Assembly (NCBI GenBank): GCA_026399735.1
Contig: JAPLQK010000033.1
Coordinates: 1-36,541 of the forward strand
Reading direction: 5' to 3'
DNA length: 36,541 nucleotides
From: Pseudomonadota bacterium
GTDB taxonomy: Bacteria > Pseudomonadota > Gammaproteobacteria > Burkholderiales > Gallionellaceae
This document shows positions 3,398 through 11,661 of the stretch, in pieces. Both the position numbers and the translations under genes were made by a program. Position 1 is the stretch's first letter, and each line of letters begins with the position of its first letter. Below the pieces are notes generated by a model. That model did no database searches, was not told where the DNA came from, and was given only the letters and a program-made list of their open reading frames with translations.

Positions 3398-4654
3398 ATG
3401 GAAACCGGTTTTCTGCAAATCAACGGCATCGAAGCCTTGCCGCAGTTCATCACCAGCCTTGCCATCGGTTTGCTGATCGGTCTTGAGCGCGAGCGCAACC
3501 CGTCTGCCCGCGCCGGCCTGCGCACCTTCGCGCTGGTCGCTGTATTCGGCACACTATCAGCCCTGCTCTCCACCAAACTGAACTCGCCCTGGCTGCTGAT
3601 TGCAGGCCTGCTAGCCGTAGCAGCCATGATCGTCGCCTCCTACATCAACAGCCATGATGACGATCCGGGCACCACTACTGTGATCGCCTTGCTGCTCTGT
3701 TACGGATTGGGCGCGATGATCTGGTATGACATGACCAAACTTGCCGTGATGCTGGCGATCGGCATCACCGCCCTGCTCTATTTCAAGCCTGAACTGCGCG
3801 GCTTCTCGCAAAAACTCACGCGCCGCGATCTGGTCGCCGTACTGCAATTTTCCGTACTGACCTTCATCGTACTGCCCATCCTGCCCAATCAGGATTACGG
3901 CCCCTATCACGCCATCAATCCGCATCAGGCATGGCTGATGGTGGTGCTGATCTCCGGCATCAGCCTGGCAGGTTATACCGCGCTGCAAGTGGTGGGGACG
4001 CGCTACGGCGCGCCGTTGCTGGGATTTTTCGGCGGCATGGTTTCCAGCACCGCGACCACCCTGATCTATGCAAAACACGGAAAACTCAATCCGGCGATGT
4101 CCTATCTGGCCGCCTCGGTGATCGTGATTGCCAGTCTGGTCGTCATTCTGCGCCTGATGGTGGTCAGCGCCGTGGTGGCTTACGGCACGATCCCCAAGCT
4201 GATGCCGGTGCTGGCAGTCGGATTGCTGTTCGGCCTGATCGTCGCACTGTATAACTGGCGCAAGATGGACAAAGCGACCGAACTCTATCTGCCCGAAACC
4301 ACCAATCCCGCTGAATTGCATTCCGCCCTCGGTTTTGGTTTGCTGTATGTCGCGGTATTGCTGGGCACAGCGGGGATGAAGGATATCGCAGGCAGCCATG
4401 GTTTATATGTCGTCGCCCTGATATCGGGCTTGACCGACGTGGACGCCATTACCCTGTCCAGCCTGCGCCTGTTCAATCTGGGCCAGCTGAACGAACACCA
4501 GACCGTCACGGCCATCGCAATCGCCTATCTGTCCAACCTCACCTTCAAATTCGGCCTGGTATTTTTCTTAGGCGGCAAAAGTCTTGCAAAACACGTCTCC
4601 GTCGGCTTCACGGCGATCGCTTGCGGGATGCTGATCGGCCTGTTTGCGTTATAA
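3398..4654 (+). CDS. MgtC/SapB-type membrane protein with DUF4010 domain
   Basis: A 418-aa polytopic inner-membrane protein. Residues 15-32 hold the MgtC/SapB-like signature (SLAIGLLIGLERER), followed by helices through about residue 140. The C-terminal half is a run of hydrophobic helices resembling DUF4010, with the small-residue motif GGMVSSTATTLIYAKH and a conserved SGLTDVDAITLS stretch. I count about 11-13 membrane segments. The molecular function of this combined family is not established; MgtC relatives are linked to magnesium limitation and virulence, which should not be carried over. It starts 1 bp after recJ stops, so it probably shares a transcript. Its 3' end is 38 bp before prfB. 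Confidence 0.85.
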   Translation: METGFLQINGIEALPQFITSLAIGLLIGLERERNPSARAGLRTFALVAVFGTLSALLSTKLNSPWLLIAGLLAVAAMIVASYINSHDDDPGTTTVIALLLCYGLGAMIWYDMTKLAVMLAIGITALLYFKPELRGFSQKLTRRDLVAVLQFSVLTFIVLPILPNQDYGPYHAINPHQAWLMVVLISGISLAGYTALQVVGTRYGAPLLGFFGGMVSSTATTLIYAKHGKLNPAMSYLAASVIVIASLVVILRLMVVSAVVAYGTIPKLMPVLAVGLLFGLIVALYNWRKMDKATELYLPETTNPAELHSALGFGLLYVAVLLGTAGMKDIAGSHGLYVVALISGLTDVDAITLSSLRLFNLGQLNEHQTVTAIAIAYLSNLTFKFGLVFFLGGKSLAKHVSVGFTAIACGMLIGLFAL

Positions 4655-4692
4655 TTGCAAGCTTTTCAGCAAGCACAGCTCAGGACAAACCC

Positions 4693-5797
4693 ATGGAAGC
4701 CGAACAAATCAATTCAATCAACAATCAATTGCAGGATTTGGCTTTGCGCAGCGCAGAATTACGGAGGTATCTTTGACTACGATACCAAACAGGAACGACT
4801 GACCGAAGTTTGCGAACTCGCCGAAGATCCGGCTATCTGGCAGGATGCCAAGCGCGCGCAGGAACTGGGTCGCGAACGCAAGATGCTCGAAGGCGTGGTG
4901 CTGGGTCTTTCCAAAATCCAGCAGGATTTGTCGGATGCAGCCGAGTTGTTCGAGATGTCGCAGGAAGAAAACGACGAAGAGTCGCTGAGCAGCACCGCCA
5001 GCGACATTGAAGATATTGAACGCCGCGTTGCTGAAATGGAATTCCGCCGCATGTTCAACCACCCGATGGACCCGAACAGCTGTTTCATCGATATTCAGGC
5101 AGGTTCCGGCGGCACCGAAGCGCAGGACTGGGCTTCCATGCTGATGCGCATGTACGTGCGCTACGCCGAGCGCAAGGGCTACCAGGTGGAAATACTGGAG
5201 TTGTCCGACGGTGAAGTCGCAGGTATCAAGGGTGCATCGCTCAAGATCATCGGCGAATACGCCTTCGGTCATCTGCGCACCGAAACCGGCGTGCATCGGC
5301 TGGTCAGGAAATCGCCGTTCGATTCCGGCAACCGCCGTCACACTTCGTTTTCCAGCGTGTTCGTCTATCCTGAAGTGGATGATTCGATCGAGATCGACAT
5401 CAATCCGGCCGATTTGCGCGTGGACACCTATCGCGCCTCAGGTGCCGGTGGTCAGCATATTAACAAGACCGATTCTGCGGTGCGTATCACCCACATCCCG
5501 ACCAACATCGTGGTGCAATGCCAGAGCGATCGTTCGCAACACCGCAACCGGGCCGAGGCGATGGCGATGTTGAAGTCGCGCATGTACGAAGAGGAATTGC
5601 GCAAACGCAACGAAGAGAAGCAGGCGATGGAAGACGGTAAGACCGACATCGGCTGGGGACACCAGATCCGCTCCTACGTGCTGGATCAGTCGCGCATCAA
5701 GGATCTGCGCACCAATTATGAGGTCGGCAACACCCAGGGCGTACTCGACGGCGACCTGGACGACTTCATCTCGGCCAGCTTAAAGCAAGGGGTATAA
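4693..5797 (+). CDS. prfB: Peptide chain release factor 2, made by programmed +1 frameshift
   Basis: RF2 recognises UGA/UAA stop codons and triggers peptide release on the ribosome. The ATG at 4693 opens a 27-codon frame that ends at an in-frame TGA (4774-4776). A +1 shift on CTT continues in the frame starting GAC at 4775, giving about 367 aa, essentially the E. coli length. The stop-recognition tripeptide SPF is at residues 207-209 and the catalytic GGQ at 252-254, inside [16 protein letters not shown]. The join is therefore joint(4693..4773,4775..5797). The gene is usually followed by lysS in related bacteria; here the jet genes follow after 3 bp. Confidence 0.97.
4763..4777 (+). promoter_or_regulatory. 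prfB +1 frameshift (recoding) site
   Basis: The elements are an internal Shine-Dalgarno GGAGG (4763-4767), a three-base spacer, slippery codon CTT (4771-4773) and stop TGA (4774-4776) followed by C. This is the classical RF2 autoregulatory site: when RF2 is scarce, termination at UGA is slow, the tRNA slips on CUU/UUU and full-length RF2 is made. The order and spacing match the E. coli element. Confidence 0.95.
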
Positions 5798-5800
5798 GCA

Positions 5801-7060
5801 ATGTCCGGCCACGATTCACTAGCCGAATTTCTTGCGCCGGGCATCATTCCCGAAGACGTTCCGCAGTTCTTCCCGCTGTTTGAAGCGCGTGCGCAGATAG
5901 CCGCGATGATCGCGCTGTTTCGTGGCGGCGACGAGGAAGTGCTGGTACGTCTGGTGGTATTGCGCGAAATCGGCCTGCGCGCCGATGCACCGGACTGGTC
6001 ACCGCGCGAACTCGAATCACATTTCGCCTTCTTCGCCACCGCCAAACTCAACACCGTGCTGAGCCGTTTGCGCGAGCATGAGTTACTGCTGTGGAATGCC
6101 GAACAGCGCGTCTATCGCTTGTCCAGCGCGGGACGCATGATGCTGGCCGCACTCTCCAATCTATTGTCATTCAGCACCGAACAGGATGGCGAACTGGGCT
6201 TTTATGCCGCGCAAATCGCCGCTGGTTCTGCGGTCGGCAAACTCTCTCCCGAAGCACTGGCACACTTGCTGGCGCGACTGGCTGAACTGGAGAGCGAATT
6301 CGAACAGGCGATCACCTCGGGTTCGGAATTCCGTCTGCGCTCCGCTCAGAACAAACTCGAATCCGTGCAGCAGTGGATGAACAAGGCTAACGAGGTGATG
6401 AAAAATCTCGGTGCAGACGGCTTTCCAGATGACGCCAGTTGGCGGCTGGCACAGGAAATCGGCAACCGCCAGTCACGGCTGGATCGTATGTCCTCCATCT
6501 TTCAACGCGAACTCGCTGCCATCGCCCGCCAACAGGTGCACCTGTCGCAAGGCGGGTTGTCTTCATCCGAACTGGCGGGCTGGCTGAAGAATCTCACACT
6601 GGATGAATTGGCTGATTTGGCAAAAAACCAACTGGCGATCACGCCTGAAACAACCTTCTTGTTGCCGGATGTCATGCTGGACAACACCGAGGAATTCTTT
6701 GAGCGCGAACAACCAAACAAGCGCGTTTCCATCCTGCCCTCGCCTGCCGAGATCGAATACATACACGACATGCCCATCGAGCCGCCGCCGCAACTGGCCG
6801 CGCTCACCCGCATGTTGCAAGCCTTGCAGCAAAATATTTCCGTAGCCGATGCGGTAGTCGGCGGCGATTTCAGTTCGGCTTCATATCGCCTGTCCTTACT
6901 GACGTTTATTGGCGAACAGAATGTGGATCCAGACTTGGCACAGCTTGCAGCCTTGCCTCTGACGCTGCGCTGGAGCGATGAATTATCTACCGTTAATCGC
7001 AACGAAGTCGCCACTTTGAGTCACGGCGAAATCATCCTTGAACAAGGAAACACAGAATGA
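5801..7060 (+). CDS. jetA: Wadjet/Mks-like kleisin subunit (JetA/MksF-type)
   Basis: A 419-aa soluble, mostly helical protein and the first gene of a four-gene block ending in an SMC ATPase and a Toprim protein. By position and shape it is the kleisin-like subunit that bridges the SMC heads. Residues about 15-115 look like a winged-helix region (LREIGLRAD ... LNTVLSRLREHELLLWN), the middle (150-260) is helical, and a second compact region lies at 330-410. I cannot match it by eye to DUF3375 (type I JetA), so subtype is open. The start ATG has an AAGGGG Shine-Dalgarno lying inside the last codons of prfB, and only 3 bp separate the genes. Its stop overlaps jetB by 4 bp (ATGA), so translation is likely coupled. 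Confidence 0.7.
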   Translation: MSGHDSLAEFLAPGIIPEDVPQFFPLFEARAQIAAMIALFRGGDEEVLVRLVVLREIGLRADAPDWSPRELESHFAFFATAKLNTVLSRLREHELLLWNAEQRVYRLSSAGRMMLAALSNLLSFSTEQDGELGFYAAQIAAGSAVGKLSPEALAHLLARLAELESEFEQAITSGSEFRLRSAQNKLESVQQWMNKANEVMKNLGADGFPDDASWRLAQEIGNRQSRLDRMSSIFQRELAAIARQQVHLSQGGLSSSELAGWLKNLTLDELADLAKNQLAITPETTFLLPDVMLDNTEEFFEREQPNKRVSILPSPAEIEYIHDMPIEPPPQLAALTRMLQALQQNISVADAVVGGDFSSASYRLSLLTFIGEQNVDPDLAQLAALPLTLRWSDELSTVNRNEVATLSHGEIILEQGNTE

Positions 7061-7728
7061 ATAACGATCTTGCCGCGCGTCTGATTGCGCACTTGCTGGC
7101 ACAACGCTATTTGCCGCGCGAGGACGCCGAAGTGCGCCGTTTGCTGATAGATAGCAGTTTCCACGACGAAGTGGAACAACGTCTTGCAACTTGCGGCCTG
7201 CGCTTGCTCGCCCAACCCTTTGCCGCTCACGTCGGCATCGCCCTGTTGCGCGAAACTGAAAGCGCCGTGTTCGAACAGAATGACACATGGCAAGCCAGCA
7301 ATATCGGCCTGCCCCGTGATGCTGTGGCGCTGCTGGTGATTTTGTGGGCGCTGATTATTCTGCCCAAGCGCGAACGCCAGTTGTCCAGCGAAGCCGCCCG
7401 GCAGGAAACGCAAAGCGAGTTGTTCGAGACCGTCAAACTCACCCCGCTGGCGCACGAAGCCTCACGCGGCATCGCCGAAAATACCCTGCTGGAAGACTAC
7501 GGCAAGCTGCTGGGCGGCAAGTCGCGCATCCAGCAATTCGCCCTGCCGCAATTGTCGCGACTGGGCTTTATCGAACGGCGCAACAAAATTATTCACGAAG
7601 GCCCGCTGTTGGATCTGGCGTTCGACTATGCGGATATGGCGCCTCGTATTCTGCAAGGCGCGCTAGCTGATTTGTTAAAACAGCGCGGTATACTGGCCGA
7701 TGTTCAAGTTGCCGAAGGAGTTGAATAA
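7057..7728 (+). CDS. jetB: Wadjet/Mks-like KITE subunit (JetB/MksE-type, DUF4194-like)
   Basis: A 223-aa protein between the presumed kleisin and the SMC gene, the place and size of JetB/MksE (usual size roughly 200-240 aa). The N-terminal region is helical; residues 85-105 are a hydrophobic helix (DAVALLVILWALIILP). The C-terminal part looks like a winged helix: LEDYGKLLGGKSRIQQF then LPQLSRLGFIERR and a beta wing. KITE proteins bind the kleisin and DNA in SMC complexes. Its stop TAA shares its last base with the jetC ATG (TAATG), and it overlaps jetA by 4 bp. The subunit assignment is by context plus weak fold cues. Confidence 0.7.
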   Translation: MNNDLAARLIAHLLAQRYLPREDAEVRRLLIDSSFHDEVEQRLATCGLRLLAQPFAAHVGIALLRETESAVFEQNDTWQASNIGLPRDAVALLVILWALIILPKRERQLSSEAARQETQSELFETVKLTPLAHEASRGIAENTLLEDYGKLLGGKSRIQQFALPQLSRLGFIERRNKIIHEGPLLDLAFDYADMAPRILQGALADLLKQRGILADVQVAEGVE

Positions 7729-10493
7729 TGTTCCGCCTACTTGAACTGGAAACCGTGCATTGGGATTACTGGCAGCGTTTCAAACTGCCGCTGGATGCCT
7801 CCATCATTACCATCATCGGCCCCAACGGCTCGGGCAAGACTACCTTGCTGGATGCGTTGCGCACACTGCTGGCGCTGGATTGCTCTAAGAAGCGCGACTA
7901 CAAACGCTATGCCAGGCGCAACGGCGAAGATTTTTGCTGGCTGCGCGGCGTGGTGGACAACCAGCGCGCTGTCGGCTCAAGCCGTCGTCCGTTCAGCATC
8001 CCCTATCAGAACGACAAAATCACGCTGGCCTGCCGCATCGACAAAAAAGGCGGTGACTGGGTACGCAAATATTGGGTTGCCGAGGGCGAAGTCGCACTGG
8101 AAAACATCGAACAACAGGGGCAGGAATTCGGCGTACGCGAATATCAGCGCCTGCTGCACGGCGCCGGACTATCCCCCGCCATCGCCCGCGTGCTGTCGCT
8201 GGAACAGGGGCAGACCGACAAGCTGTGCGAACTGTCGTCACGCGAATTGCTCGACCTGGTGTTTCAGGTGTTCGGCGACAAGGACGTACTGGAACGCTAC
8301 CAGGAAGCGCGCCACCATCAGGAACATACCTCTCACGAACTGGATGCCGTGCAGAACCAGCTCGAAGCGCTGGGCAACAGTCTGGAGCGTCACGAACAGA
8401 AGGTAAACCGCTATCTGGAATGGCACAGGCTGAACCAGGAATCCACGCTGCTGGCGAGCGAAACGCGTCCGCGTCTTGAACATTTTCTGCTTCAAAAAGA
8501 AGCGCTTGGCGCTTCACACACGCTGCACGCCCTGCGCCGCGACTGGCATGGAAAACGTGTTGAAAAACAAAAAGTTGCGCTTGATTTGCAAGTGCAGCAA
8601 CAAACGCTGGATAACGCGCAATTGCGCCGCCAGGCTGCACACGACAACGAGCAGTCGCAGCAGCGCGCGCTGAACGAGTTGAGCCGCGAGTTGGGCAATT
8701 GGGAAGCCATCGTCAAACAGCATGACCGCCTGCTGCAACAGGCCGCAGACAGTGCAGACGGCAAAGTGGCCGATGCCCGTGAACTGGTGCAACTGGAAAA
8801 CGAGCGCGATGCCCGTCGTTTGCGCATCGCCGAACTGGAACAGCAGCAACGCATCCTCGACGAGACGCTGGAAAATCTCGCCGCCGGACGCCGCGCCGAT
8901 CCGGCCGATGTCGCCGCCTTCAGACAGGCGCTCTCCAGCGCCGGCATCGGTCATGACCTGCTCACCGATCTGGTGGAAATCAACGATCCCGGCTGGCAGG
9001 CGGCGGTGGAAGCCGTGCTGGCGCCGTTTGCGCATATCGTATTGCTGAGCAAGGAGCGCGACGCCGAGGCCGCGATGGCGCTGGGCGAGAAGCTGCGCTA
9101 CCGCCATTTCATCGTGCCGGAGCGCAGCCAGCCCGGCCTCGCGCCGCAAGGTTCGCTGCTGGAAGTGGTGCGTTTCGCAAAACCCGTACCCGACTGGTTG
9201 CTGCGATTGCTTGAACGCATCCGCCGCGTGGAAGATGCCGGTGCCGGAGCGAAGCTGCCGCGCGGCGAGGACTGGATCACCCGTCAAGGCTATCTGCGCG
9301 AGCGGCGCGGCGGGCGGCATGCCGCCCCCGAACAGGCGCGCTTTGGCAAGGGCAGACTGGAAGCCTTGCGCGAAGCGCGTGCCGCATTGGAAAAGTCGCT
9401 GGAACCCCTGCGTCAGCAACGCGACGAATTGACCAGTCGCATCCGCTCTTTGCAGGCGCAACTGGCCGGAGTGAGTGCAGGCGCGCAACTGGCCACCCGT
9501 GCCGCCGAATTCGCCGAAGCGCGTCAGCATTACGATGCACTGGTCATCAGACGTCGGGACAACAGCGTGTATCAGGCGCAACAAGACCGCGAGCAGGCCG
9601 AGGCGGCGGTCAACGCCGCGCAACTTGAGTTATACAAGCTGCAAAAGAAGCTGGAACAACTCTCCCGCGACATCGCCGAAAAACAGAACCGCGCCGCCCG
9701 CGACGAACAGGTAAAACGATTGCTGCGGCTGCGCCATGACAGGCAGATTTTGCCTGCGACCTGGCGCGAAATGAGCGCGAATCAGCAAATCGCAGAACGA
9801 TGGCGTGACACTGCCAGCATCGAGCGGCGCATAGAGGAAATCAGGGAACGCTTTGCGGAAGAAACCTGGGAAACCGATGCCAGCGTGGTGGCCTTGCGCG
9901 ACAAGATACGCGACGACTATGCGCGTCAGGAAGGCGACTTGGCGCACCGCCGTCGCGACAACGAAATGGCGCGCAGCCAGACCGATGCGGCGCGCGAACA
10001 ATACATCACCGTGCTACGCTACACCGTCAACCGTTATGTGAAGAATCTCAAGTCGCTGGGTGAAATGGCCGGTATCCGCGTGGAGCATGAACCCGTAATG
10101 CTGGCGGGCGACGATGACACGCTGGCGCAGGCGGGGCTGGCGGTGCGCTTCGATTTCGACGAGAAGGGCTTCATGGGCATGAATGACGGCGATGCATCAG
10201 GTGGCCAGCAGGTGATGAAATCCCTGGTATTGCTGGTCGGCCTGATGATGGAAGAGTCACGTCCTGGCGGTTTTGTGTTCATAGACGAACCGTTCGCGCA
10301 TCTCGACATCGTCAACATTGAGCGCGTCGCCGCTTTCCTCAAAGCCACCCGCGCACAATATCTGCTCACCACGCCAGTCACGCACAACGTCAATGTCTTC
10401 GATCCTTCCATGCTGACGCTGGTGACTTCTAAGAAACGCGCAGGTGAAACATGGGCGCCGCGTATCGTGGTGATGGTGCGTGAACGCGACTGA
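7728..10493 (+). CDS. jetC: SMC-like ATPase of a Wadjet/Mks system (JetC/MksB-type)
   Basis: A 921-aa ABC-type SMC protein, the predicted loop-extruding motor of the system. Walker A GPNGSGKTT is at residues 31-39, the ABC signature SGGQ at 824-827, and Walker B with catalytic glutamate (FVFIDEP) at 849-855, followed by a D-loop (HLDI). Between them run two long coiled coils (about 195-390 and 540-770) around a compact hinge near 400-500, recognisable by the segment WQAAVEAVLAPFAHIVLL. That is the SMC layout, not that of a short ABC protein. Shorter than the roughly 1,100-aa SMC of type I Wadjet as I remember it, mainly through shorter coils. Starts behind an AAGGAG site and overlaps jetD by 14 bp. 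Confidence 0.88.
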   Translation: MFRLLELETVHWDYWQRFKLPLDASIITIIGPNGSGKTTLLDALRTLLALDCSKKRDYKRYARRNGEDFCWLRGVVDNQRAVGSSRRPFSIPYQNDKITLACRIDKKGGDWVRKYWVAEGEVALENIEQQGQEFGVREYQRLLHGAGLSPAIARVLSLEQGQTDKLCELSSRELLDLVFQVFGDKDVLERYQEARHHQEHTSHELDAVQNQLEALGNSLERHEQKVNRYLEWHRLNQESTLLASETRPRLEHFLLQKEALGASHTLHALRRDWHGKRVEKQKVALDLQVQQQTLDNAQLRRQAAHDNEQSQQRALNELSRELGNWEAIVKQHDRLLQQAADSADGKVADARELVQLENERDARRLRIAELEQQQRILDETLENLAAGRRADPADVAAFRQALSSAGIGHDLLTDLVEINDPGWQAAVEAVLAPFAHIVLLSKERDAEAAMALGEKLRYRHFIVPERSQPGLAPQGSLLEVVRFAKPVPDWLLRLLERIRRVEDAGAGAKLPRGEDWITRQGYLRERRGGRHAAPEQARFGKGRLEALREARAALEKSLEPLRQQRDELTSRIRSLQAQLAGVSAGAQLATRAAEFAEARQHYDALVIRRRDNSVYQAQQDREQAEAAVNAAQLELYKLQKKLEQLSRDIAEKQNRAARDEQVKRLLRLRHDRQILPATWREMSANQQIAERWRDTASIERRIEEIRERFAEETWETDASVVALRDKIRDDYARQEGDLAHRRRDNEMARSQTDAAREQYITVLRYTVNRYVKNLKSLGEMAGIRVEHEPVMLAGDDDTLAQAGLAVRFDFDEKGFMGMNDGDASGGQQVMKSLVLLVGLMMEESRPGGFVFIDEPFAHLDIVNIERVAAFLKATRAQYLLTTPVTHNVNVFDPSMLTLVTSKKRAGETWAPRIVVMVRERD

Positions 10494-11661
10494 TACGGTT
10501 CAGATTGAGTCACTTGATCGGCTATGCAAACGCCGTCGTCGCTTCAAGCCTGAAGCCGCACAAAATTTGACGCTGATCCCTTCGGAATGGCGCGAACTGC
10601 TGATCCGTTGGGTCAAGCGTGGCGGCAACAGCCGCTGGGAGACACTGCTCAAAGATGCCGGAACGACCAATCTGGTGTTAGCTCAAACCCTGCTTGAATG
10701 GCTGGTGCGCGAAGGCTGGGCCAACGTCACCGAAGAGCGCAAACATGGCGACTGGTGGCCTCAATCGCTTGAACTGCGCAATCTGCCGCAACTGCGCACC
10801 GCATTAGGACTTGGCGACAAGGATCAGGATGCGCTGCGCTGGCAAACCTTGCAGGCTCAATTGCGTACACAATGTAGTGAGTCTCTCGTCCCCGCCCTGA
10901 TTGCCCTTGATGAACTTCCCGTGCATCGCGCGCTGGTGCGCTGTGATCTGATTTTTGCCCTGGAGCGCTGGAAGGAGGCGCAACGCAGCGGCACACGCCG
11001 GGATTTCGCTCTGGAAGCCCGCGACGACACCAAAGGTATCAGTGAATCCGAATGGACTTGGCTGGAGCAAACTGTTGATCTGGCGGAATTCCGCATCGAA
11101 CGCCACACGCCCCTGCTGCTGATCTCTGCTCCCCTGACGCTGATGTTGCCAAACGGGCGATTCGATCTGGCGGCTTGCAGCGATTTCGCCGCGCTGACCC
11201 CCACAACCGTACACGCGATCCACTCGATTTCAGGTGCGGTTTCCTGCTGGCAACTGATCGAAAATCGTACCAGTTTCGAGCGTGTAGCTCGCAGTCGAAC
11301 ACCGGATATCGGCGTAATCTGGTTGCCCGGCTATCCTCCCGGCTGGTGGTGCAAAGCCGTTGCAAGGCTTATGGACTTATCCCCAGCCCCGGCACAAATC
11401 GCCTGCGACCCGGATCCAGCGGGTATTGCCATCGCATTAAAAGCCGCAGAACTCTGGCTGGAACGGAAGTTCGTCTGGTTGCCCTGGAAGATGTCAGCCT
11501 CGGATTTAGCCGCATTGCGTGTGCGCAAACCGCTGACCGAAGCTGACCGTCTCCAACTCGCTTCCATGGATAAATCAACCGCGCTCCCGGACGCTCTGGC
11601 CGGACTTGCTGCATGGATGCTGGAGCATGGCGAAAAAGGCGAACAGGAAGGATTTATATAA
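10480..11661 (+). CDS. jetD: Wadjet Toprim nuclease subunit (JetD/MksG-type, DUF3322/DUF2220)
   Basis: A 393-aa protein with an N-terminal DNA-binding-like region and a C-terminal Toprim domain. The Toprim acidic residues are visible: Glu261 in IENRTSF and Asp310/Asp312 in CDPDPAG, separated by the glycine-rich strand PGYPPGWW. ENxxSF plus DPDPAG is the form seen in DUF2220 proteins. In characterised Wadjet complexes JetD cuts the DNA after the SMC motor has reeled in a closed circle. The start is GTG at 10480, inside the end of jetC; upstream is only a weak ribosome-binding site, fitting translational coupling. It is the last gene of the block; the next gene, glgA, is convergent. Confidence 0.85.
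   Translation: MNATDTVQIESLDRLCKRRRRFKPEAAQNLTLIPSEWRELLIRWVKRGGNSRWETLLKDAGTTNLVLAQTLLEWLVREGWANVTEERKHGDWWPQSLELRNLPQLRTALGLGDKDQDALRWQTLQAQLRTQCSESLVPALIALDELPVHRALVRCDLIFALERWKEAQRSGTRRDFALEARDDTKGISESEWTWLEQTVDLAEFRIERHTPLLLISAPLTLMLPNGRFDLAACSDFAALTPTTVHAIHSISGAVSCWQLIENRTSFERVARSRTPDIGVIWLPGYPPGWWCKAVARLMDLSPAPAQIACDPDPAGIAIALKAAELWLERKFVWLPWKMSASDLAALRVRKPLTEADRLQLASMDKSTALPDALAGLAAWMLEHGEKGEQEGFI

What the first reader, a model, noticed from the sequence alone, without database searches (positions are those of the whole stretch)
5801..11661. Compact Wadjet/MksBEFG-like SMC defence operon
Four overlapping genes encode, in order, a putative kleisin (419 aa), a KITE-like protein (223 aa), an SMC ATPase with Walker A, signature and Walker B motifs (921 aa), and a Toprim protein with Glu261/Asp310/Asp312. 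Overlaps of 4, 1 and 14 bp indicate tight co-translation. This gene set is known from Wadjet (JetABCD), which cuts closed circular plasmids. The JetC length and a JetA I cannot place in DUF3375 leave open a divergent subtype.
Basis: partly seen in the sequence, partly recalled or inferred. Interest (0 to 1): 0.75.

Follow-up and report, generated by a model that had tools for sequence, protein, structure and literature searches.

The report
Divergent Wadjet-like plasmid-cutting SMC operon
Next to a translation gene, an iron-oxidiser relative carries a four-gene DNA-motor-plus-nuclease operon that looks like an uncatalogued cousin of the Wadjet plasmid-destroying systems, and many of its relatives have the motor without the nuclease.

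Summary
B (KITE) and A (kleisin) match no Jet family model at E 0.001, but their predicted structures hit Wadjet JetB, and MukF plus Wadjet JetA chains, as best solved structures. C is an SMC (921 aa versus 1117-1145 in four type I JetC) whose hinge region is close to type I JetC. D is a Toprim nuclease of the JetD kind with E261, D310 and D312 in place. I file it as an uncatalogued variant near type I. A loose scan found at least 544 relatives of C. The more interesting result is evolutionary: the operon sits near prfB in 37 of 73 loci, with or without jetD. JetD is absent beside 36 of 76 scorable jetC genes (32 after a genome-level correction), and the JetC tree needs about 9 changes of state. 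One Thiobacillus locus keeps a jetD stub of about 34 codons. JetABC stays under purifying selection where JetD is absent. Anti-plasmid activity is inferred, not shown. Whether Pseudomonas MksBEF belongs to this family could not be tested.

The parts
5801..7060 (+). jetA-like kleisin (419 aa): N-terminal winged-helix region about 1-126, helical middle 130-248, low-confidence linker about 278-322, C-terminal winged-helix region about 330-413 (domain names are my reading of the secondary structure)
   Evidence: AlphaFold2 model pLDDT 80.6, pTM 0.42; Foldseek best PDB hits: MukBEF chain 9gm7_C E 3.1e-5, 7nz2_C1 5.0e-4, Wadjet-II chain 9qe1_E 2.7e-3 (prob 0.60), MukF(1-287) 4.1e-3, E. coli JetABCD chain 8q72_E 7.5e-3 (prob 0.57) (that these chains are the kleisins is inferred from length, save 1t98); no Jet family match
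7057..7728 (+). jetB-like KITE (223 aa)
   Evidence: AlphaFold2 model pLDDT 80.9, pTM 0.72; best PDB hits E. coli Wadjet chain 8as8_C E 1.2e-4 prob 1.00, PA14 Wadjet 8dk1_F 3.4e-4 and 8dk1_E 1.4e-3, then MAGE-G1/NSE1, Nse1-3-4 and ScpAB chains (chain identity inferred from length)
7728..10493 (+). jetC-like SMC ATPase (921 aa), shorter than type I JetC
   Evidence: Pfam SMC_N 3.5e-16, SMC_hinge 1.3e-4; hhalign to type I JetC prob 99.8, E 8.8e-29
7818..7844 (+). Walker A GPNGSGKTT of JetC (residues 31-39)
   Evidence: alignment A4
8952..9245 (+). SMC hinge of JetC (residues 409-506)
   Evidence: Pfam PF06470, 22.8 bits against cut-off 22.5
10197..10211 (+). ABC signature SGGQQ of JetC (residues 824-828)
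   Evidence: invariant in the 10 sequences of A4
10272..10307 (+). Walker B and D-loop FVFIDEPFAHLD of JetC (residues 849-860)
   Evidence: A4
10480..11661 (+). jetD-like Toprim nuclease (393 aa)
   Evidence: PADLOC JetD1 7e-12, best stretch 201-299; hhalign to type I JetD prob 98.3, E 2.2e-14, 324 columns; 8 of 23 family members match DUF2399, 2 match Pfam JetD_C, the window protein neither at E 0.001
11260..11262 (+). predicted catalytic E261 in ENRTSFER, aligned to ENQTTFER of a type I JetD
11407..11415 (+). predicted metal-binding D310-x-D312 in ACDPDPAG, aligned to GDID of type I JetD
4693..5797 (+). prfB (RF2) with a probable +1 frameshift site (AGGTATCTTTGAC; site recalled from E. coli prfB); its stop ends 3 bases before the jetA start, so jetABCD probably shares its transcript
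   Evidence: Pfam PCRF and RF-1; sequence and frames; no terminator-like site on the + strand between 4500 and jetA (a weak scan)

Best explanation
A divergent Wadjet-like plasmid restriction system. JetC (SMC), JetA (kleisin) and JetB (KITE) form a loop-extruding motor; on a small closed circular DNA the motor runs out of DNA, stalls, and JetD's Toprim dimer cuts the circle. Shown here: gene set and order, sequence or fold kinship of each of the four proteins to Wadjet subunits, ATPase and Toprim residues in place, purifying selection. Inferred from published type I Wadjet work: extrusion, circle sensing, cutting. The motor part also seems to have a job of its own, because it stays under selection where JetD is absent.
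For: Folds of A and B; JetC closer to type I JetC (E 8.8e-29) than to type II (1.8e-7) or to the SMC frame on contig C18 of the same genome, taken as the canonical Smc (prob 37.7, E 3.4e-4; one sequence only); JetD homology with catalytic acids; four genes together in 36 of 89 loci; JetC rare on plasmids (2 of 72,556 records, each covering about half the query) and not found in phages (0 of 50,697); JetD patchy: 11 of 300 genomes of the order, 0 of the 4 other same-genus genomes in that draw.
Against: No activity data. prfB lies near the operon in 37 of 73 loci, unlike a mobile defence island. JetD is missing from many relatives. JetA and JetB have no sequence-level match to Wadjet I or II, although the type I-type II JetA control pair also fails there. 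JetA's fold hits are modest (two with E under 0.001, global TM 0.14-0.20; model pTM 0.42), and its Wadjet chains rank below MukF.
Confidence: 0.7

Rival explanations
1. It is primarily a chromosome-organising condensin of the MksBEF kind that keeps a JetD/MksG-like nuclease in some lineages; plasmid restriction is secondary or vestigial. (Not exclusive of the best reading.)
For: JetABC without JetD beside it in 36 of 76 scorable loci; 22 of 28 genomes searched have no JetD match at E 0.001, some of them incomplete bins; JetC dN/dS 0.026-0.149 in 7 pairs with no jetD beside jetC (the Chromobacterium pair has an orphan JetD, one Methyloversatilis genome a fragment); prfB/lysS site; MksB is reported to have a short coiled coil (PMC4255302, passage).
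Against: The window copy has JetD with all three acids, and JetD dN/dS is 0.108-0.245 in 6 pairs, so JetD is under selection where present.
Confidence: 0.35
2. It is simply one of the already described MksBEF(G) families (for example that of Pseudomonas aeruginosa PA4684-PA4686), so nothing new at family level. (A matter of naming; not exclusive of the best reading.)
For: Several mutually distant MksBEF families were described (PMC7485682, introduction); short-arm MksB.
Against: JetA and JetB are not recognised by NCBIfam or PADLOC Jet models. No Pseudomonas title was among the 80 kept loci, but at least 464 further relatives were not listed. Four published primers in PA4684/PA4685 do not decide it.
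Confidence: 0.35
3. A Lamassu/DdmABC-type SMC defence system.
For: PADLOC LmuB matches JetC at 7e-18.
Against: A JetC1 model scores higher (3e-20), a Pfam SMC hinge is present, and there are a kleisin, a KITE and a JetD Toprim. That Lamassu lacks kleisin and KITE is recalled.
Confidence: 0.02

Closest known systems
Wadjet type I (JetABCD; MksBEFG of Corynebacterium glutamicum; EptABCD)
   Same: Gene order A-B-C-D, kleisin/KITE/SMC/Toprim set, JetC hinge region, JetD over most of its length with ENxTxFER, DxD and EQE motifs aligned.
   Different: JetA does not match type I JetA models and JetB does not match DUF4194/JetB1 at E 0.001; JetC is about 200 aa shorter (921 versus 1117-1145 aa in four type I JetC).
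Wadjet type II (TIGR02677/02678/02680/02679)
   Same: Same kind of four-gene set; a Wadjet-II chain is among the JetA fold hits.
   Different: JetB 409-441 aa and JetC 1352-1412 aa in five type II operons; D and A/B profile similarity weak or none, JetC similarity moderate.
MksBEF condensins (Pseudomonas aeruginosa)
   Same: SMC/kleisin/KITE without nuclease, as in the JetD-less relatives; reported short coiled coil.
   Different: Sequence relation not tested here.
MukBEF
   Same: MukBEF kleisin chains are the best fold hits of JetA.
   Different: MukBEF has no nuclease and long arms (recalled); Pfam MukB matches JetC only at E 0.075.

Membership tests
Wadjet type I | JetA of the DUF5716/DUF3375 family (DUF5716 is PADLOC's label; DUF3375 recalled) | tested here: not met
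   0 of 33 JetA members match a PADLOC JetA model at E 0.1, while two true type I JetA give 9.7e-130 and 2.1e-110
Wadjet type I | JetB of the DUF4194 family | tested here: not met
   no DUF4194 among Pfam matches of the window protein up to E 1; PADLOC JetB1 best E among 33 members 0.0038 against 1e-54 and 1.7e-45 for true ones; the fold does match
Wadjet type I | SMC with Walker A, signature, Walker B and hinge, related to JetC1 | tested here: met
Wadjet type I | JetD nuclease with Toprim acids | tested here: met
   hhalign prob 98.3; acids aligned; no fold prediction of D was made
Wadjet (any type), as a kind of system | Kleisin + KITE + SMC + Toprim subunit in one operon | tested here: met
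Wadjet (any type), as a kind of system | Cuts or excludes closed circular plasmids | not testable with these tools
   needs experiment
Wadjet type II | TIGR02677, 02678, 02680 and 02679 proteins | tested here: not met
   NCBIfam: no TIGR02677 or 02678 for A and B; D matches TIGR02679 at 0.0019, 17.3 bits against cut-off 196; TIGR02680 is not among the best 25 of 67 families shown for C
Wadjet type III | JetA3/JetB3/JetC3/JetD3 models | tested here: inconclusive
   no JetA3 in 33 JetA members at E 0.1; JetB3 best E 0.036 in 33 members; no type III JetC among the best 25 of 71 matches shown, no JetD3 among 6 for D; no type III operon was in hand for profile comparison (0 of 249, no control rang)
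MksBEF of Pseudomonas | Sequence kinship to PA4684-PA4686 | tested here: inconclusive
   sequence not obtained; peptides read from four published primers: random 20-mers scored as high in 172, 104, 154 and 25 of 300 draws
Lamassu | LmuB-type SMC without kleisin/KITE (recalled) | tested here: not met
   KITE and kleisin folds present

The most novel reading that the evidence does not exclude
This family is a natural series of a plasmid-restriction SMC turning into (or back into) a chromosomal SMC: one operon, often at one chromosomal address behind prfB, from which the nuclease gene has been lost repeatedly while the motor stays under purifying selection. The JetABC motor would then have a chromosomal function of its own, and JetD would be an optional effector, even living unlinked in Chromobacterium.
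Probability: 0.45. Interest if true: 0.7.

Novelty: new variant of a known kind. Interest (0 to 1): 0.52.

Why it matters
A review supposes that P. [quoted passage not shown] This family offers closely related pairs with and without JetD, in cultured as well as uncultured genera (record titles), so that the change can be tested directly. It also seems to be a plasmid-restriction variant that PADLOC-DB 2.0.0 and NCBIfam 20.0 do not recognise by JetA or JetB. Wadjet-I has a hinge channel, whereas Wadjet-II, Wadjet-III and MukBEF lack it and, save a few Wadjet-III, tend to have longer arms (PMC12647877, passages); a short SMC with a Pfam SMC hinge is a useful test case for that idea.

Tried and rejected
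Sequence comparison of JetA and JetB with Wadjet I and II by profiles gave nothing, but the type I-type II JetA control also failed, so it was not taken as evidence of non-kinship; fold comparison was used instead. Sequence profiles against PDB sequences were uninformative for A, B and D.

Idea that D-less loci carry another nuclease in place of JetD: not borne out by the 9 downstream genes examined (one locus each; L102 among them is scored 'unknown' in the tree): EF-hand proteins (2), an RlmL-like methyltransferase, an NTF2-like protein, an M1 peptidase, a reprolysin-like protease, a GGDEF protein, DXS and an ABC/NMT1 protein. The other D-less loci were not examined in this way.

First count of JetD changes (10) was corrected: a genome-wide look in 28 genomes (27 of the 36 D-less loci plus L102) found full-length or near-full JetD elsewhere in 4 (three Chromobacterium and the L066 genome) and fragments in 2; relabelled (44 with, 32 without, 8 unknown), the tree needs 9 changes, 8 forced by starred branches, shuffled mean 24.5, 0 of 500 as low. 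The nine untested D-less loci are all Dyella or Luteibacter. The 84-row tree left out L015-L017 (copies of L052, L062, L093) and five loci without one usable JetC (L018, L023, L060, L075, L087). The tree is quick, unrooted, and does not by itself tell losses from gains.

Attempts to reach Pseudomonas MksBEF failed: in a class draw I looked for Pseudomonas by a lipoprotein family and inspected only the two best hits, neither of Pseudomonas type as far as I recall that protein; the order of one of them gave 0 of 311 for JetC, with no positive control; the 2011 MksBEF paper is not held; primers from PMC2658670 gave no result. JetB3 search rang nowhere, so it shows nothing. (JetB profile: own genome only of 321) scored at most 8 candidates per genome and is weak as evidence of absence. 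No paper describing this family appeared in the listings of searches; the library lacks most subscription papers.
Full report
What is there. The window is contig C93 of a 2.38 Mb, 82% complete genome. Its nearest relatives in the JetC tree are Gallionella bins (JetC 96% identical to L025). Genes A, B, C and D at 5801-11661 overlap by 4, 1 and 14 bp. The jetA start lies 3 bases after the stop of prfB, whose start I place at the ATG at 4693 and which carries an AGGTATCTTTGAC frameshift-like site. No terminator-like site lies between 4500 and jetA on the + strand, in a scan that found no more sites than shuffles do.

Identity of the parts. C is an SMC ATPase (SMC_N 3.5e-16; hinge at 409-506). Profile comparison puts it closest to type I JetC (prob 99.8, E 8.8e-29, 289 columns of hinge and adjoining arm), then type II (93.8, 1.8e-7); a 1104-residue stretch of the SMC frame on contig C18 of the same genome, as a single sequence, gives 37.7, 3.4e-4. 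D matches JetD1 in PADLOC at 7e-12 (best stretch 201-299), and type I JetD (four proteins) by profile over 324 columns at prob 98.3, E 2.2e-14. The alignment puts E261 on the glutamate of ENQTTFER and D310/D312 on GDID. Among 23 family members, 8 match DUF2399, 2 Pfam JetD_C and 1 the Topo VI-A/Spo11 Toprim; the window protein matches none of these at E 0.001.

A and B have no Jet family match: 0 of 33 JetA members match a Jet model of NCBIfam (E 0.01) or PADLOC (E 0.1), and the best JetB1 E among 33 JetB members is 0.0038. Other weak matches did occur: the NCBIfam Rv3488 regulator in 6 of 33 JetA (best 1.5e-4), HldE in 1 (1.3e-4), PADLOC JukB in 8 of 33 (best 7.7e-5); I take the first as a winged-helix signal and the others as chance. 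The controls work: true type I and II JetA and JetB match PADLOC at 1.7e-45 or better. Structure prediction (33-row alignments; pLDDT 80.6 and 80.9) and Foldseek gave, for B, an E. coli Wadjet chain (1.2e-4) and two PA14 Wadjet chains, then MAGE/NSE1, Nse1-3-4 and ScpAB chains, that is, KITE-bearing complexes. For A the hits were MukBEF chains (3.1e-5, 5.0e-4), a Wadjet-II chain (2.7e-3), MukF(1-287) (4.1e-3) and an E. coli JetABCD chain (7.5e-3), with global TM-scores of only 0.14-0.20 and a model pTM of 0.42, which I read as a flexible kleisin; winged-helix regulators follow. Which subunit each chain is, I inferred from length except where the title says it. So the four parts are kleisin, KITE, SMC and Toprim nuclease. 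For A the call rests on fold, gene order and the architecture of two winged-helix ends around helices and a loose linker.

Relatives. JetD in the window's order: 11 of 300 genomes at E 1e-5, the window's own genome included and one genome (G175) with weak matches only; none of the 4 other same-genus genomes in the draw. JetC: 39 of 250 at E 1e-30 in a draw from the order of another locus, the centre genome included; loci seen before reappear, so it is the same order. The draws differ, so the ratio is rough, but the motor is several times commoner than the nuclease. That the order is GTDB's Burkholderiales is recalled. The scan of one genome per species found at least 544 relatives of JetC at a loose E 1e-3, of which I saw the best 80; these are titled as Pseudomonadota except two of Desulfuromonadales kind.

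Absence of JetD. Of 84 JetC rows, 40 have JetD in the locus, 36 have none with at least 1.5 kb downstream in hand, and 8 cannot be told. A JetD profile in the genomes of 27 of those 36 (plus L102) hit 6 of 28: three Chromobacterium with an intact 406-codon jetD and no jetABC in the 16-18 kb around it, the L066 genome with jetD on another contig, and two fragments. One fragment, in Thiobacillus 65-1402, is about the last 34 codons of jetD, right behind jetC: a deletion scar. With the four relabelled, the JetC tree needs 9 changes of state, 8 forced by supported branches, against 24.5 in shuffles. The JetD tree puts the orphan Chromobacterium JetD beside the operonic Aquitalea JetD (support 94/85), which fits a move within the lineage. 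JetC without JetD beside it keeps its motifs (signature and Walker B pattern in 36 of 36, Walker A pattern in 34 of 36; with JetD 39, 39 and 38 of 40). Its dN/dS is 0.026-0.149 in 7 pairs, against 0.050-0.201 in 6 JetD-bearing pairs and 0.060-0.178 in 3 pairs that involve the D-less L033 or L057; JetA in the closest of these (L057-L045, dS 0.09) reaches 0.388, which could mean relaxed constraint there. JetD itself is at 0.108-0.245 in 6 pairs.

Place in the genome. prfB lies within four genes upstream in 37 of 73 loci that have A, C and upstream sequence: 22 of 34 with jetD, 15 of 39 without jetD in view. lysS lies within four genes downstream in 21 of 77 (14 of 37 with, 7 of 40 without). These counts rest on a simple gene caller of my own and BLAST labels, and 'without' includes loci cut by contig ends; the label lolC is mine and wrong: that gene is an MgtC/DUF4010 protein. 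So, in that half of the loci, jetD is present or absent at one address. In the one Dyella locus that I checked, GTP cyclohydrolase I lies upstream instead.

Mechanism. The window's complex would do this with arms shorter by roughly 100 residues each than type I (921 versus 1117-1145 aa; inference from lengths). PMC12647877 (passages) reports that Wadjet-I has a hinge channel for obstacle bypass while Wadjet-II, Wadjet-III and MukBEF lack it and mostly have longer arms; a short JetC with a Pfam SMC hinge fits the channel-bearing group, which is a prediction only.

Known or new. It works like Wadjet, by inference, and is nearest to type I, but fails the sequence criteria of type I for JetA and JetB, so I file it as an uncatalogued variant. 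PMC7485682 (introduction) says that several distant MksBEF families were described, and PMC4255302 (passage) that MksB has a short coiled coil; this family may be, or include, one of them. That is the main uncertainty about novelty and could not be tested here.

Noticed in passing
window 4655-5797: prfB appears to keep the classical +1 programmed frameshift (CGGAGGTATCTTTGACTAC); the ORF list's TTG start lies in the other frame. jetABCD probably shares this autoregulated transcript.
   Followed up: partly
L126 8631-9848, L127 9582-10799, L128 8293-9510: Three Chromobacterium genomes carry an intact JetD with no jetABC within the 16-18 kb read, while jetABC lies elsewhere in the genome.
   Followed up: partly
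L131 6917-7021 (same place as L057): About 34 codons of the jetD 3' end remain directly behind jetC in Thiobacillus sp. 65-1402: a jetD deletion scar.
   Followed up: yes
L091 7873-8979; L088 774-1880: A tRNA (uracil-5-)methyltransferase gene (PF05958, tested in L091 only) sits between jetB and jetC; L088 has a gene of the same size there. L067 and L101 have reverse-strand genes called in the same gap.
   Followed up: partly
L109 4671-5821: A conjugative Vibrio nigripulchritudo plasmid carries a type I Wadjet operon whose jetC is interrupted by an IS3-family element, as annotated.
   Followed up: no
L072 11793-12131: A small EF-hand protein gene follows jetC in a JetD-less Dyella; similar-sized called genes follow jetC in other Dyella loci, and one in Methylophilus sp. 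13 (L048) is also EF-hand.
   Followed up: partly
window 3398-4654: An MgtC/DUF4010 membrane protein gene lies between recJ and prfB and recurs near them in related genomes.
   Followed up: no
L084: A contig titled as a Bordetella parapertussis bin from a metagenome groups with an uncultured Burkholderiales bin; the organism label may be wrong and was not checked.
   Followed up: no
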